64,000 nucleotides of DNA, taken from assembly GCF_032854445.1 (NCBI RefSeq), contig NC_088301.1, forward strand, positions 57,238,512-57,302,511. The letters run 5' to 3'. The position numbers and the translations under genes were made by a program. Of the stretch, positions 24,112-50,203 are shown piece after piece. Numbering within the stretch: position 1 is the first letter of the stretch; the number at the start of each line of letters is the position of its first letter. The DNA comes from Liolophura sinensis (lineage: Eukaryota; Mollusca; Polyplacophora; Chitonida; Chitonidae). The notes beneath the pieces are model-generated. The model had not been told where the DNA came from, searched no databases, and was given only the letters and a program-made list of their open reading frames with translations.

Positions 24112-27100
24112 TCAACGCATGTACATGGCAGCTGGCCCCTGCTCCTCTGACTGCCTGGCTGGGTCTGGGTAACAGGTCAGGTCCAGTGTCAACACGTTGC
24201 TAATCACACACTCGCCAATCTACAAGGGAGAATTTAAATTTCTTACAAGTCACACACACTGCAGGATCTTGTTCACATTTACAGGTTACCATTTGGAAAA
24301 CAATATGGAAAAACAATGGAAAACAACTGGTATTCAATAATGTACCAAGGGGCGTGATCCACTGTCAGTTAAAAGAAAACGTTGGTAAATATCTTCACCT
24401 TAAAACAAGTAGCTGGTGGGTTAAAGCACAGTAACAGTTGGATAGAATCACATGATATACTCCATAACCATTCCCATTGGTAGACCTTGTATAATTGTAA
24501 GGCACAGAGTTGTGCGTGTCATACCTCAGGATATATTCCAATGAGAGCATCAGCTCTGTTGTAGAACTCCTCTTTCAGAGAAATGACGATACACTGGAAA
24601 TTTATTTCTGACTGCTCCTGGATGTACGAGGCCACCTGAAACAGTTCACAGACTAGCATCATAATCTACAAACATGGACAAGTAATTGAGTCGGCACTCA
24701 CATTCAAGTAAATTGTTCTAATAACCTACTTAACAACCTAATATCCTTCACTAGGGTAATGTGTGTGTGCTGGGGTGGGTGGAGCTTTTGTCTGGATACT
24801 GTTTTTAGTGAACAGACTAGTAAACTTCACAAGCTGAAACAAAATTGAATTGAAGGCTGATTGGTGCTTAAAAGAGACCCCCTATGCCTTTATTCCCACA
24901 GTAAATATTCCTAATATATACACATGATGTCAAAATTGTAAAATCTGTGTTGTCTATATATTCCAAAGCATTTAGTCCATGGGCCAGACATGATATTGGT
25001 GCCACCAGAGGTGGCCAAACCTAACATGTTTACTTGGTCAGTGTAAGTAAATTAAGACATGACAGCCTTTCTGCAATTGTAGTTTTATTACACATTTTGA
25101 TGAAATGAAAAATCAGTTGACAACATGTATAAGGCATTGTTAAAATTAAGAAAAGCAAGAGAAACATTAATGTATCATGGACTCTCGTTTAATAATATAA
25201 AAAGACCAATTTAGAAGGGTTGTTGGATTGTTCATGAAGCAAAGAAAATTTAGCAGTACACATTTTGTCTATATTTCTTGTACGCTATGAGCTGAATATT
25301 CATTTGACACATTTATACATTTACATGTAAGATTTGCAAGGCTTTCAGCTAGGTTGATAACAGTTTATTTAATTACAGTTTATTCAAGCATATTCTGAAG
25401 GCATTACTCTGTGCAGACTGATAAAATTATAGCTTTTGTGAAGCCCTGAAATTGGTCAACCCAACCAATGTAGTTTTGTCTCCAAAATCATAAAAATGTG
25501 CATAAATTGGACTGATAGTTGCTCTTTCACATGTAAAAAGGTTGAAGAATCAGGGTATACCCAACTGTGCACTAATGACAATATAATAATAACATCTTCA
25601 ATTATCGAAGGTAGCTCGGTCAATTTCCAATGACACTGTTCTTCCCCAAGGCCATCACAGAGAAAACAAATATACAGGACACATGCACTTCATAATCCAA
25701 TCAAAAAACACATCAATATATATAAAACAAGATAAAGCACCAGGCAGTTTGACAAGAGAAGTTATATACCTTTATACATACAAAAAGCGATAACACAACT
25801 AATGGTGCTGTCCCTTCAACTGTCCCAACCAGCACAACTAAGGTAGTGGCCGGAACTTCCTACATGCATGTACACAGAAACAAACCAAGTCAGTGGAAGA
25901 TGGCCCCTTTCCAGTCCCCTGTTTGGTTCGAACAACGCATGTGTATGCAAGCGTATTACAGGGACATACATCAAAGTATAAATGATACAGTGAAAGCATA
26001 CATACACACAGGAATGTACATTTCATACGTTGTCTGACTAAAATTGTGATTTTAAGGAGCATGATTGAAAGCTTGACAGAGAGGGAGCTTCTTTTATGTG
26101 GATAGGGAGACAGTTCCATAGTTTGATGCCTATATGTGTAAAAATTTCTGTCATGCAATTTTGTCCTTGCTTTAGGGAGATATATATAGTATGTTGTGTT
26201 GATCTCAGAACAATATCGGGCAGCTGTTTGGTGGAAAAAGCTGTTTAATATAGTTTGGACAGAGATTATGTAATGTTTATAGATGATACAACAAATTTTT
26301 TGGTTTACCTTTCGTTAAAATGCATCCATTTTAGCCTCCAAAGTTCTTCTACATGTGTTTATGCTTTCTTATAGAACTGAAGAAGCAGCTCTTTTCTGTA
26401 ACTTAACCATCCTTTATCTATTTTTAGTTGAATAGTTTGCCCATACTGAACAGCAATGATCTAAGTGACGAAGAACATAAGACTTATAGAAAATATCACT
26501 ATCGTGACATATTTGTAGAGCTCTCATCCTTCACAGAATCTCTAACAATTTAGAAACCTTTTTACACACATTTCTGATTTGTGTGTTCCAGGAAAGATGT
26601 TCATCAATACAAATACCAAGCAGTGTAGCATTACTGACTCGTTTGTGTTTACTTCAATCAAGCATAACAGAAAAAGGAACATGTTTGATTAACTGCAGCC
26701 GCTGCCTGGAGCCAAGTATCACATATTTACATTTTTAGGGATTAATGAACATGAGGTTTTTGTCGCACCCGTCTTTAATGCAATCCATATTGATGTTTGT
26801 ATGGCGCTCATTTCTTTTATTTACGCTCATTACTACAGTGAGTTAAGATAGATAAGCCTAGGTAAGTAAACATTCGTGTCACTGCCTTACTTGTGATCTA
26901 CAGGACTGAAAAGTACCTCAGAACAAACCTTTGATCAGATTTTTTGACTTTCCATCAAGAATGCTAGTATTTTAAAGTTCCACCAAACACTAAGATTAAG
27001 AATTCTTTGCAAAGTGTAAATGTCTACTTTGAAGTTAAAGACAAAGAAAGAAGAAGAAAAACACACTATTATGAAAGTATGTCACACAATATACTTTTTT

Positions 27101-30100
27101 TTTCAAATTTTACAACCTAGTAAATTGCCCTTAAAACACTGGATATTTGATTGGCCTTTTCTGACCATATTGTGAACAGTGATGTCACATAAGGTTTATG
27201 CCACTTGATGAATGCAGACTGCTAGTTAAACTACTACATTAAAATGCACAGACATACTTGTTTAGAGCCTTAAATGCACTGGCTGAATGAACCCTGAAGC
27301 AAATCATTTCTTAATGGATATATCCATTGTTGATGAAGGCACTCCTATGCACATGGAGCAGCCAGGCATCATTCATTGTTTTGACGATTACTCTGAATCC
27401 TCAATATCGCGAGAAGAATAAGTTCGTGGAACATTCTACGACGAGCGGACATCAGGCAACAGGAGTTGAACATGAACAAACTTCTAAAATGAAAAAGGGC
27501 TCAGTAGCACTTTTATCATGACAAAGACTTGATAGTACTATCCAAACATGCTGGTGATTAACCTGTAACTATCAATTTTAGAAGATGTTCTAGTGATACA
27601 CCAACTACTTTCAGAGCATTCATCCACAATGTGTTTTCATAGATCTCAACATATTCACTCTTCAGAGATGAAATGGTGCGCGCATACTATCACAACAGTT
27701 ATGCAGACAAAGATGTCTCAAGGATTATAATGCATATGCAGTTCTCTAATGGATGAAAACACATGCACAAGCCCCCTATCTAGTTTGCTTAGCTTGGTGC
27801 AGATGGCAGCATACTTAGAACAGCAATCCAAAAGACCCAAGAATCTTTGCCATACACAATTAAGATGGACCTTGATGCTGTAGTTGTGCATGAGAAGCTC
27901 TAAATTGTACATAAAGAGGAAGCCATAATTGTTCATTCATTTCTCCAGAAGTGCAGGGGAGAAACAGACAGAAACAGACTATAGGAGTTAATGCAAACAT
28001 TCAATGAAAAGTCCTTCTTAAAGGGAACGTTCATCTTACATCATCTTATTAAATCATCTTATAAGTCATTCTACAAAGTGCAGCGCCTGACAGATTTAAC
28101 ATCAATGTCAAAACTTCCACAAACAATCATGTTTCACAATGAGTTGGATGAATCCCTTCACTTTGTTTTTTCGATAAAAGAAAGAAAGCTTGACCTTACA
28201 ATGAACCAATGACTGCCAACACCCAGGGTTCCGTAATCAAAACCATCGTGCAATTTAACACATCAAATAGCAAGATGTTAGTTAAACACCCATGGCACCC
28301 GCTGACAGACAAAAGATAAATAGCAATCGGCCAGGGCTATCATATCAAAACATGTACTAAAGATATGTACCATCTTGAAAATAGTGAAGAGATCTGGTCA
28401 CCCTGGGTGGTACCAATATGTGAAATTTTGGGCCTTGACCCATGGACTAATATGCCTGCTGTGAACCTACCACTGGACATACTTCACTCTTTGAAGTGAA
28501 GTAGATTTTCTGACGTTTGATCGACAAATGGTACTGTTTTTATTGTGTTTTAAATGCTTGGAATCGATTTATGGGACATTAAATTATCTATCTACAGTTT
28601 GGCAGGCCCAGTGCTTGGGATCTACTTTAAAATACATTTACAGAAATTTTGAAAGCCTTTAGCTATACAGGTAACATGAAAGGAATAAACCACAAGCATT
28701 TTTATCACACCTATATTTATTTTTTAGCCCCAATAACAGATCTTACCTTGCTGATATTTGTATTGTCTAAAGCAGCATCAATCTCATCTAGCACAAAGAA
28801 CGGCGCTGGTTGGTAACTGAAAGCATATAATATCCATCATTATTAATCAAGCAACAGATGCAACTTCCAAAAAAGTCAGTTGTGCACATGTGTTCTTGTT
28901 CTTGGATTCGCCCGAGTAAGCAGGTAATACAATTGCAAGATTCCATCCACTAATTATATAGGTTTAATCTAATTCACTATGTTCAACCAATTGAACCTTT
29001 TCACATATATAAGCAGAATTCATGATAAAATTTATGCATTAAAAGATGAATGGTAAATTCAAAAAATAAAGACAGTCATTTTACATGCAACAAAAAAGGC
29101 ATCCAAAAAACTCAACATCCAGCCATCTGAGACCAAGGGACCCTTGCCAATATTAGTGAAGACAGTAAATTTGGTAGTGAAGACAGTAAATTTGGACATT
29201 CTTTTTTCAAATTCTTGATAAATGCTTGACAAAAGAAGTGCAAACTTATAGTATTTGAGGACTAATCTATATATTGGTAGGGGGCTAATAAAGTCTTGCA
29301 GCTTTGCTTAGATTTGAATGAGAAATATAGCAGAAATAAAACCCACCTGTGAATGGCAAAGAGTAGAGCTAAGGCAGCCACTGTCTTCTCTCCTCCTGAC
29401 AAGTTGTCCATGGGCCTAAATCGCTTCCCGGGAGCCACACAGTTGTAGTTGATGCCTTCCAGATATGGTTCCTCTGGATTTTCTGGGCCAAGGAAAGCTT
29501 GGGCACCTTGGTTCCTGGACAATGCCTACAAGGTTGCAAGATGATGGCAAAATAAAACCCAGAGCACTATATTGTTATTATCACTTTCTGAACACTATTA
29601 AACTATGGTGACACACTGATGGTATTCATAACACTGTCACCGCAAGGTGACTTGATGCAGACTATCTACCTTCCCTTAGTACTAAATCTTCATAAATAGA
29701 AATGCACTTTTAAAAGAGTTTACCCAGGCTATCAGGACTCCTGAAGGGCCACCATCATTCATAACAATCATAGGCCCTATACGAAGCTTGCTTTGTTTCT
29801 TAGAAAACAGCGTTTACAGAATAGAACTGTGTAACATTACCTTGTAAATTTCATCTATCCTTGTTGACACATGTTCAAAACACTGCTGAAAACGGTCATT
29901 TCTCTCTTTTCGCACTTTCTCAAATGCTTGTTTTGCCCTCTTTGCTCGTCTTCGTGCACTTTCAAATTCCTCTGCAGTGGACAGGAACCTTTCCTTTACA
30001 CCATCCAGCCTGTCAAACAAGTCACATAAATGTACTTTATAATACTGATGCCACAATGAATCAAATGACTATAGAGTTCTGATATCTCAACTTATAACTA

Positions 30101-50000: not shown

Positions 50001-50203
50001 AACAATGGGCACAAGCCAGAGCAGCAATGTTACTGGAGAGAGAGCAAGAGAGGAATCGCAGAGAAATCCAGACACGTGTGGCTGATGAGAACAGGCGCTT
50101 ATCACAGGAACAGAAGGCTCACCAGGAGTTCCTTGACAAAGAAGTGTACACCAACCCACCCACAGCAGCTTACTTTATGCAATTTAACACTACTACTCGA
50201 TAA
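47087..50203 (+). CDS. RIBC2: RIB43A-like coiled-coil protein (RIBC1/RIBC2 family), complete
   Basis: Structural protein of the ciliary doublet microtubule; family members are microtubule inner proteins near the ribbon protofilaments of the A-tubule. Exons 47087-47203, 48071-48152, 48554-49017, 49393-49620 and 49955-50203 join in frame to 379 residues, the normal family length. The product is almost wholly charged coiled coil. Diagnostic blocks are [18 protein letters not shown] near residues 4-22, FNAKVRTIG (31-39), the [13 protein letters not shown] block, [20 protein letters not shown] starting near 255, and the C-terminal [19 protein letters not shown] starting near 361. The start is the first ATG before the conserved N-terminal block. 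It is head to head with SMC1. Because it probably predates the RIBC1/RIBC2 split, the symbol stands for the family. Confidence 0.95.
47204..48070. other. RIBC first intron; nothing recognised
   Basis: AT-rich intron with no exon, RNA gene or repeat that I can support. Confidence 0.5.

What the first reader, a model, noticed from the sequence alone, without database searches (positions are those of the whole stretch)
24112..50203. Ancestral head-to-head SMC1-RIBC gene pair
SMC1 (-) and a RIBC1/RIBC2-family gene (+) start 593 bp apart. In human, SMC1A and RIBC1 (Xp11.22) and SMC1B and RIBC2 (22q13.31) are each arranged head to head. The simplest explanation is one ancestral divergent pair, kept together since before protostomes and deuterostomes split and then duplicated as a unit in vertebrates. 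A cohesin gene and a ciliary microtubule inner protein have no obvious shared function, so such long linkage suggests a shared promoter constraint or a functional tie.
Basis: partly seen in the sequence, partly recalled or inferred. Interest (0 to 1): 0.8.

Follow-up and report, generated by a model that had tools for sequence, protein, structure and literature searches.

The report
Ancient SMC1–RIBC head-to-head gene pair
In a mollusc genome, most likely a chiton, the cohesin gene SMC1 and the sperm-tail/cilium gene RIBC sit back to back across one short stretch of DNA, as their two human gene pairs do, so this arrangement probably dates from the ancestor of molluscs and vertebrates and survived the early vertebrate genome doublings.

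Summary
Confirmed. SMC1 is a complete 28-exon gene (minus strand, 46493 to 24112, 1245 aa); RIBC is a complete 5-exon gene (plus strand, 47087 to 50203, 379 aa); 593 bp separate their start codons. Each is the only gene of its kind found in the assembly, which matches the chiton Liolophura japonica in size and scaffold number. The gap is the CpG-richest stretch of the window and holds an exact E2F/E2F6 site. The ancestral-pair reading is supported, mainly by linkage: seven of seven genes predicted from (mostly recalled) human SMC1A/SMC1B neighbourhoods lie on the same chiton scaffold, WNT7 109 kb from SMC1. So SMC1A–RIBC1 and SMC1B–RIBC2 most likely arose by whole-genome duplication of one block. 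My trees lean that way but do not decide it, and gene order in other invertebrates could not be tested. For the human pair, papers report a promoter variant proposed to co-regulate SMC1B and RIBC2, and both genes rising when MGA is lost. A shared bidirectional promoter is the likeliest constraint; germline co-regulation is possible. New member of a known kind (ancient divergent gene pairs), unusual for surviving in both vertebrate copies.

The parts
24112..46493 (-). SMC1 gene (cohesin ATPase), 28 coding exons, 1245 aa; ATG at 46493, stop at 24112–24114
   Evidence: gene model, all introns GT–AG, one frame; human SMC1A 1624 bits
47087..50203 (+). RIBC gene (RIB43A family, microtubule inner protein of cilia and sperm tails), 5 coding exons, 379 aa
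   Evidence: exon table; Pfam RIB43A 492 bits; PDB RIBC2/RIBC1 chains
46494..47086 (.). 593-bp shared intergenic region, putative bidirectional promoter; CpG observed/expected 1.20 against 0.34 for the window
   Evidence: 26 CpG; the CpG-richest 593-bp tile of the window (34 CpG) starts at 46601; 10 of 635 tiles reach 26 CpG, six of them overlapping this region
46629..46636 (-). exact E2F-type site TTTCCCGC (contains the E2F6 motif TCCCGC)
   Evidence: motif TCCCGC from PMC8195999 (passages)
46636..46644 (+). YY1-like site AAGATGGCG, overlapping the E2F site by one base (motif name recalled)
   Evidence: only copy in the window
46668..46675 (+). TCTCGCGA (BANP-type motif, name recalled)
   Evidence: one of two copies in the window
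46954..46967 (+). X-box-like (RFX) site GTTGCGATAGTAAC, about 120 bp upstream of the RIBC ATG; weak
   Evidence: 9 of 12 consensus bases, a score reached or passed at 12 gap-2 places in 64 kb; the stricter pattern was written after seeing the site

Best explanation
One SMC1 gene and one RIBC gene shared a short divergent promoter in the last common ancestor of molluscs and vertebrates. The chiton keeps that single pair. In early vertebrates, whole-genome duplication copied the surrounding block, giving SMC1A–RIBC1 and SMC1B–RIBC2, and both copies kept the head-to-head arrangement. The likely reason it lasts is that the two transcription units use one CpG-rich, open promoter: a break between them would remove regulatory sequence from at least one gene. 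Shown here: both gene models, orientation, spacing, single copies found, CpG-rich gap and block-level linkage in the chiton. Taken from papers: adjacency and joint response of SMC1B and RIBC2 in human. Recalled: most human gene positions and the orientation of SMC1A–RIBC1. Inferred: that the chiton gap works as one bidirectional promoter and that selection against separating the genes preserves it. The confidence given is for ancestry plus block duplication; for the shared-promoter constraint alone I would say about 0.6.
For: Gene models and 593-bp gap. Single copy as far as searched: 4 of 4 RIB43A matches are exons of this gene; SMC1-grade matches only in the window, the other two places being SMC4 (115 against 67 bits) and an SMC3-like fragment (identification recalled). 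Linkage: 7 of 7 predicted genes on C7: SYN, ATXN10, HUWE1/DUF908, TIMP inside SYN on the other strand (34; weak match, 27.9 bits), IQSEC (36), KDM5 41 kb from IQSEC (37), WNT7 best match 66% identity, 109 kb from SMC1. Other genes searched fall elsewhere: RAD21 C3, other SMCs C12 and C6. HDAC11-like gene next to RIBC. Human: a copy gain holding SMC1A, RIBC1, IQSEC2 and HSD17B10 at Xp11.22 (PMC3435243, passages); rs2272804 lies in the CpG-island promoter 144 bp upstream of the SMC1B start and, by the title of its reference 39, in the 5'UTR of RIBC2; the authors hypothesise that one haplotype co-regulates both (PMC12960220). MGA loss raises both SMC1B and RIBC2, and E2F6 is needed for PRC1.6 at the SMC1B promoter (PMC5806899, passages). 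The RIBC tree puts chiton outside mammalian RIBC1+RIBC2, bootstrap 67.
Against: Only one invertebrate genome could be examined. The RIBC tree does not reject RIBC1 branching before the invertebrate genes (AU p 0.53), and the SMC1 quartet is undecided (AU 0.61 against 0.44, with a recalled SMC1B). In that quartet the raw site counts favour SMC1A with chiton (26 sites) over SMC1A with SMC1B (6), a pattern that long-branch attraction would also give. No transcription data for the chiton: whether both genes start in the gap is not shown. The X-box-like site is weak, and NRF1, ETS, Sp, full CRE (TGACGT) and CACGTG patterns have no match in the gap. In HEK293 cells SMC1B did not rise on loss of L3MBTL2 or PCGF6, and RIBC2 is named only in the MGA-knockout list. 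The paralogon membership of the seven linked genes in human is recalled, apart from IQSEC2 at Xp11.22. C7 carries at least four WNT genes, so the WNT7 placement is weaker evidence than the scaffold's share suggests.
Confidence: 0.8

Rival explanations
1. Passive survival: the pair is ancestral but held by no special constraint. Chiton and vertebrate chromosomes have rearranged slowly, and short intergenic gaps are rarely hit by breakpoints.
For: The block is conserved at chromosome scale, so slow rearrangement is real here. PMC3403606 (passages) argues that co-regulation does not drive preservation of bidirectional pairs.
Against: [quoted passage not shown] this pair survived in both human copies. 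Human SMC1B and RIBC2 do respond together.
Confidence: 0.25
2. Germline co-regulation: the pair is kept because both genes must be switched together in germ cells, SMC1 for meiosis and RIBC for the sperm tail, through an E2F/PRC1.6-type switch on one promoter.
For: MGA loss raises both genes. Mouse Smc1b is an E2F6 target listed among genes with only the E2F6 motif; the motif is TCCCGC (PMC8195999, passages). The chiton gap carries TCCCGC, 3 copies in 64 kb. RIBC1 and RIBC2 are highly expressed in testis (PMC12842877, passages).
Against: SMC1A serves mitotic cells, and E2F6-bound promoters are enriched for cell-cycle and DNA-replication genes; 10% of shuffled gaps hold an E2F match. RIBC2 also belongs to motile cilia, studied among Rfx2 targets in frog multiciliated cells (PMC3889689, passages). 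No chiton expression data.
Confidence: 0.15
3. Older duplication: RIBC1 and RIBC2 (and SMC1A/B) split before molluscs and vertebrates diverged, and the chiton lost one pair.
For: Topology with RIBC1 outside is not rejected (AU p 0.53); the SMC1A+chiton topology is not rejected (AU 0.44).
Against: Maximum-likelihood trees favour vertebrate-specific duplication. PMC2680839 (passages) describes the SMC1beta duplication as a vertebrate one, independent of that in Daphnia. The linkage fits whole-genome duplication in vertebrates.
Confidence: 0.06
4. Coincidence: independent head-to-head placement in molluscs and vertebrates.
For: None found.
Against: Three instances with the same orientation (SMC1A–RIBC1 orientation recalled), genes found once each among about 28,000, and the same surrounding block.
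Confidence: 0.01

Closest known systems
Human SMC1B–RIBC2 (22q13.31)
   Same: Same two gene families, divergent, around a CpG-island promoter (PMC12960220; orientation follows from the SNP being upstream of SMC1B and, by a cited title, in the RIBC2 5'UTR)
   Different: SMC1B is meiosis-biased and E2F6-silenced; the chiton SMC1 is the only SMC1 found and must serve mitosis and meiosis (inference)
Human SMC1A–RIBC1 (Xp11.22)
   Same: Same two families, in one four-gene copy gain (PMC3435243, passages; one figure legend there prints RIBC2 instead); direct head-to-head adjacency is recalled
   Different: X-linked; mammalian RIBC1 is further from the chiton protein (38–41% identity) than RIBC2 (44–45%)
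Ancestral metazoan microsyntenic pairs and bidirectional promoters (Irimia 2012, seen only as a citation; PMC5429095 and PMC6292497, passages)
   Same: Two unrelated genes kept adjacent over very long times, probably by shared cis-regulation
   Different: PMC5429095 stresses distal enhancers inside a bystander gene; here the shared element would be the promoter itself. SMC1/RIBC is not named in the main texts of PMC5429095, PMC3815023, PMC4773876 or PMC3403606
SYN–TIMP nested gene pair and the Xp11/22q/3p25/12p paralogon (recalled)
   Same: Same ancestral chromosome block; nesting suggested in chiton too
   Different: Nested rather than divergent

Membership tests
SMC1 (cohesin subunit) | Full-length SMC with head, hinge and coiled coils, closer to SMC1 than to SMC2/3/4 | tested here: met
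   Human SMC1A 1624 bits over 3–1233; best SMC4 256, SMC2 131, SMC3 108 bits
RIB43A / RIBC | RIB43A domain over the whole protein | tested here: met
   PF05914 492 bits, profile 2–372 of 372; RIBC2, RIBC1 and RIB43a chains in PDB
Divergent (head-to-head) gene pair under 1 kb | Opposite strands, 5' ends facing, gap below 1 kb | tested here: met
   ATG-to-ATG gap 593 bp; real start sites unknown
Bidirectional promoter | Both transcripts start in one shared open region | not testable with these tools
   CpG richness and motifs only; no CAGE or ATAC data
Ancestral bilaterian microsyntenic pair | Same adjacency and orientation in a protostome and a deuterostome | tested here: met
   Tested here in the mollusc; the human side rests on papers, with SMC1A–RIBC1 orientation recalled
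Ancestral bilaterian microsyntenic pair | Present in most other invertebrate phyla and cnidarians | not testable with these tools
   No animal genome at hand apart from G000; two viral-contig scans and one genome-contig scan gave no animal locus among those listed
Vertebrate whole-genome-duplication (2R) pair set | Duplicated loci belong to one pre-duplication linkage block | tested here: met
   7 of 7 predicted block genes on C7; RAD21 and other SMCs elsewhere (8, 18, 38). Human positions mostly recalled
Vertebrate whole-genome-duplication (2R) pair set | Invertebrate genes branch before the A/B and 1/2 splits | tested here: inconclusive
   Favoured but not significant

The most novel reading that the evidence does not exclude
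The SMC1–RIBC promoter is an ancient animal germline switch: one E2F-type repressed, CpG-rich promoter that opens in germ cells to supply cohesin for meiosis in one direction and a sperm-tail protein in the other. It would have been kept since before molluscs and vertebrates diverged and inherited twice in vertebrates, so that a human promoter variant on a haplotype associated with egg aneuploidy (rs2272804) acts on a regulatory unit more than 500 million years old.
Probability: 0.15. Interest if true: 0.85.

Novelty: new member of a known kind. Interest (0 to 1): 0.56.

Why it matters
The majority of a set of ancestral divergent promoters were separated in vertebrates (PMC6292497, passages), so a pair that survived in both duplicated copies is a good natural test of what holds genes together. 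The human SMC1B–RIBC2 promoter sits under a common haplotype associated with maternal meiotic aneuploidy, where the authors treat RIBC2 as a secondary hit (PMC12960220, passages). A deep shared promoter gives a reason why both genes respond and offers simple invertebrate systems in which to dissect it. The linkage result also supplies a mollusc counterpart of the (recalled) Xp11/22q13/3p25 block.

Tried and rejected
Oyster as the source was my first guess from scaffold size and was dropped when 609.5 Mb and 632 scaffolds matched the chiton paper. A second SMC1 in the genome was rejected: C12 is SMC4 and C6 is SMC3-like by recalled motif. The X-box as firm evidence was dropped: 12 gap-2 places in the window score as well or better, and the stricter pattern was written after seeing the site. 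The result that 0 of 2000 shuffles hold 3 of 4 motifs is post hoc for the same reason: the motifs were chosen after reading the sequence, and nine other motif types were scanned too; E2F alone is present in 10% of shuffles. Trees were tried and are not decisive; the RIBC tree used 8 of the 15 distinct PDB sequences listed (among those whose letters were printed) plus the chiton. The 82 loci L004–L085 were not used. Irimia 2012 (PMC3514665) is not held, so whether SMC1–RIBC is in its list is unknown. Paper searches aimed at this pair; wider ones; most papers listed there were seen only as listings, and 15 papers in all were looked into, as passages (plus section 8 of PMC12960220).
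Full report
What is there. On the minus strand the window holds a complete SMC1 gene: 28 exons, all introns GT–AG, one frame of 1245 aa from the ATG at 46493 to the stop ending at 24112. Its best solved relative is human SMC1A with 1624 bits; the full-length SMC1 chains 6yuf and 7ogt (yeasts by recall) score 654 and 458, and SMC4, SMC2 and SMC3 at best 256, 131 and 108. On the plus strand a complete RIBC gene has five exons between 47087 and 50203 and 379 aa. It fills the Pfam RIB43A profile from 2 to 372 of 372 with 492 bits and matches RIBC2 and RIBC1 chains in PDB. 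593 bp separate the two start codons.

Copy number. In the whole assembly the RIB43A family matches only this gene, exon by exon, 4 of 4 matches. The most conserved 140 residues of SMC1 give six matches. Four are exons of this gene at 77–95% identity; the other two are at C12 (43%) and C6 (51%). The C12 piece is SMC4 (115 bits against 67 for SMC1A). The C6 piece reads like SMC3 (that identification is recalled). Gaps or withheld stretches could hide a copy, so this is 'one found', not proof of one.

Which animal. G000 has 609,464,459 bases in 632 contigs. The published genome of the chiton Liolophura japonica has 632 scaffolds and 609,495,693 bases (PMC11068029, passages). C7 reaches at least 58.44 Mb and C6 is 82.49 Mb. 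If this is that assembly, C7 is its 96.4-Mb or 60.4-Mb scaffold, 15.8% or 9.9% of the genome.

Surroundings. Upstream in the window lies a dynein heavy chain gene on the plus strand (Pfam MT, Dynein_heavy, AAA_lid_11, Dynein_C; axonemal type by recall), convergent with SMC1. Beyond RIBC lies a histone deacetylase gene on the minus strand: one of two pieces tested passes the Pfam cut-off, narrowly (28.9 against 27.9 bits), and I read it as HDAC11 by recalled motifs. In one search, 6 of 10 open frames tested had a Pfam match.

Test of the duplication story. If human SMC1A–RIBC1 and SMC1B–RIBC2 come from whole-genome duplication of one block, other genes of those human regions should sit on the chiton chromosome that carries SMC1–RIBC. 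Their human places are recalled (Xp11, 22q12–13, 3p25, 12p13), except that PMC3435243 reports SMC1A, RIBC1, IQSEC2 and HSD17B10 in one Xp11.22 copy gain and PMC12960220 places UPK3A, FAM118A, RIBC2 and SMC1B in one haplotype of about 120 kb. I searched seven such genes, chosen before each search, and all seven are on C7; none was dropped: synapsin at 44.27–44.28 Mb, ataxin-10 at 58.44 Mb, HUWE1 (DUF908) at 54.15 Mb, TIMP at 44.27 Mb inside synapsin on the other strand (E 5.9e-4, a weak match), IQSEC at 52.98 Mb, KDM5 (PLU-1) at 53.02 Mb, and WNT7 with the best match, 66% identity, at 57.15 Mb, 109 kb from SMC1. TIMP and IQSEC/KDM5 are not independent of their partners, leaving five placements. 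At no more than 15.8% each, all five by chance is about one in ten thousand. That is generous for WNT7: the 16 matches fall into about eleven WNT genes, four of them on C7 (my grouping), and allowing for that gives about two in ten thousand. Families searched for other reasons fall elsewhere: RAD21 on C3, other SMC genes on C12 and C6.

Trees. With a RIB43a chain (6u42, Chlamydomonas by recall) as outgroup, the maximum-likelihood RIBC tree joins chiton with the 8snb (sea urchin by recall) RIBC2 chain (bootstrap 46) and mammalian RIBC1 with RIBC2 (bootstrap 67). Of seven topologies tested, the AU test rejects one (p 0.006). It does not reject RIBC1 branching first (p 0.53); it gives 0.09 for RIBC1 with both invertebrates and 0.10 for one order with urchin beside RIBC2. 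Chiton RIBC is 62% identical to urchin, 44–45% to RIBC2 and 38–41% to RIBC1. [quoted passage not shown]

The gap. CpG observed/expected is 1.20 against 0.34 in the window; 10 of 635 tiles hold at least its 26 CpG, and the richest tile (34) starts inside it. It contains TTTCCCGC, which includes the E2F6 motif TCCCGC (3 copies in 64 kb), a YY1-like AAGATGGCG, a TCTCGCGA, an ATF half-site TGACG (40 in 64 kb, not notable) and a weak X-box-like site. No CACGTG E-box is present. None of 2000 dinucleotide shuffles held three of four chosen motifs, but the motifs were chosen after reading the sequence, so this is suggestive only.

How it probably works. The human pair is the best guide. rs2272804 lies in the CpG-island promoter 144 bp upstream of the SMC1B start, and its alternative allele weakens ATF1 binding; ATF1 was also inferred to regulate SMC1A (PMC12960220, section 8). 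The TWAS peak was led by RIBC2, and the authors hypothesise that the same haplotype co-regulates both genes (passages). MGA loss raises SMC1B and RIBC2, and E2F6 is needed for PRC1.6 at the SMC1B promoter; SMC1B did not rise on loss of L3MBTL2 or PCGF6 (PMC5806899, passages). Mouse Smc1b is listed among germline genes with only the E2F6 motif (PMC8195999, passages). Ribc2 was studied in an analysis of Rfx2 targets in frog multiciliated cells and is needed for ciliary beating (PMC3889689, passages), and RIBC1 and RIBC2 are highly expressed in testis (PMC12842877, passages). The simplest account is one open promoter serving both directions, hard to split without harming a gene. Whether that amounts to useful co-regulation in germ cells is open.

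Against what is known. Ancient microsyntenic pairs and ancestral bidirectional promoters are an established kind. [quoted passage not shown] the majority were lost in vertebrates, 54.5% in stem vertebrates (PMC6292497, passages). Another paper repeats the view that bidirectional pairs are conserved only within vertebrates (PMC3403606, passages). SMC1–RIBC goes against that trend twice over. I saw no statement of this deep pair in the listings, nor is SMC1 or RIBC named in the main texts of PMC5429095, PMC3815023, PMC4773876 and PMC3403606. The most relevant list (Irimia 2012) is not held, so it may be there.

Verdict. The part not tested is its presence in other invertebrate phyla.

Noticed in passing
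window 1–18000, + strand: Dynein heavy chain gene (axonemal type by recall), convergent with SMC1, so the order is dynein heavy chain – SMC1 – RIBC: two axoneme genes flank the cohesin gene.
   Followed up: partly
window 56414–57369, - strand: Histone deacetylase gene, HDAC11 by recalled motifs, next to RIBC. By recall, human HDAC11 neighbours FBLN2 and WNT7A while RIBC2 neighbours FBLN1 and WNT7B.
   Followed up: partly
G000 C7:44266271–44281921: A weak TIMP match on the minus strand lies inside the synapsin gene on the plus strand, suggesting that the nested SYN–TIMP arrangement is present in this mollusc.
   Followed up: no
G000 C7:52977738–53022948: IQSEC and KDM5 lie 41 kb apart on one strand, like their human neighbours IQSEC2 and KDM5C (human adjacency recalled). 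The KDM5 matches lie in long open frames (up to 999 aa).
   Followed up: no
window 51316–53298: Long minisatellite-like array, open in several frames on both strands, between RIBC and the histone deacetylase gene.
   Followed up: no
window 45561–46221: SMC1 intron 1 holds near-copies of one sequence: similar minus-strand peptides start at 46221, 45940 and 45671, a possible tandem or mobile element.
   Followed up: no
window 46382–46400 and 42770–42796: The SMC1 Walker A region reads GPNGCGKS where human SMC1A has GPNGSGKS.
   Followed up: no
window 7629–8187: Repeats with Gly/Glu/Arg-rich open frames on the minus strand and Ser/Pro-rich ones on the plus strand, inside the dynein gene region.
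   Followed up: no
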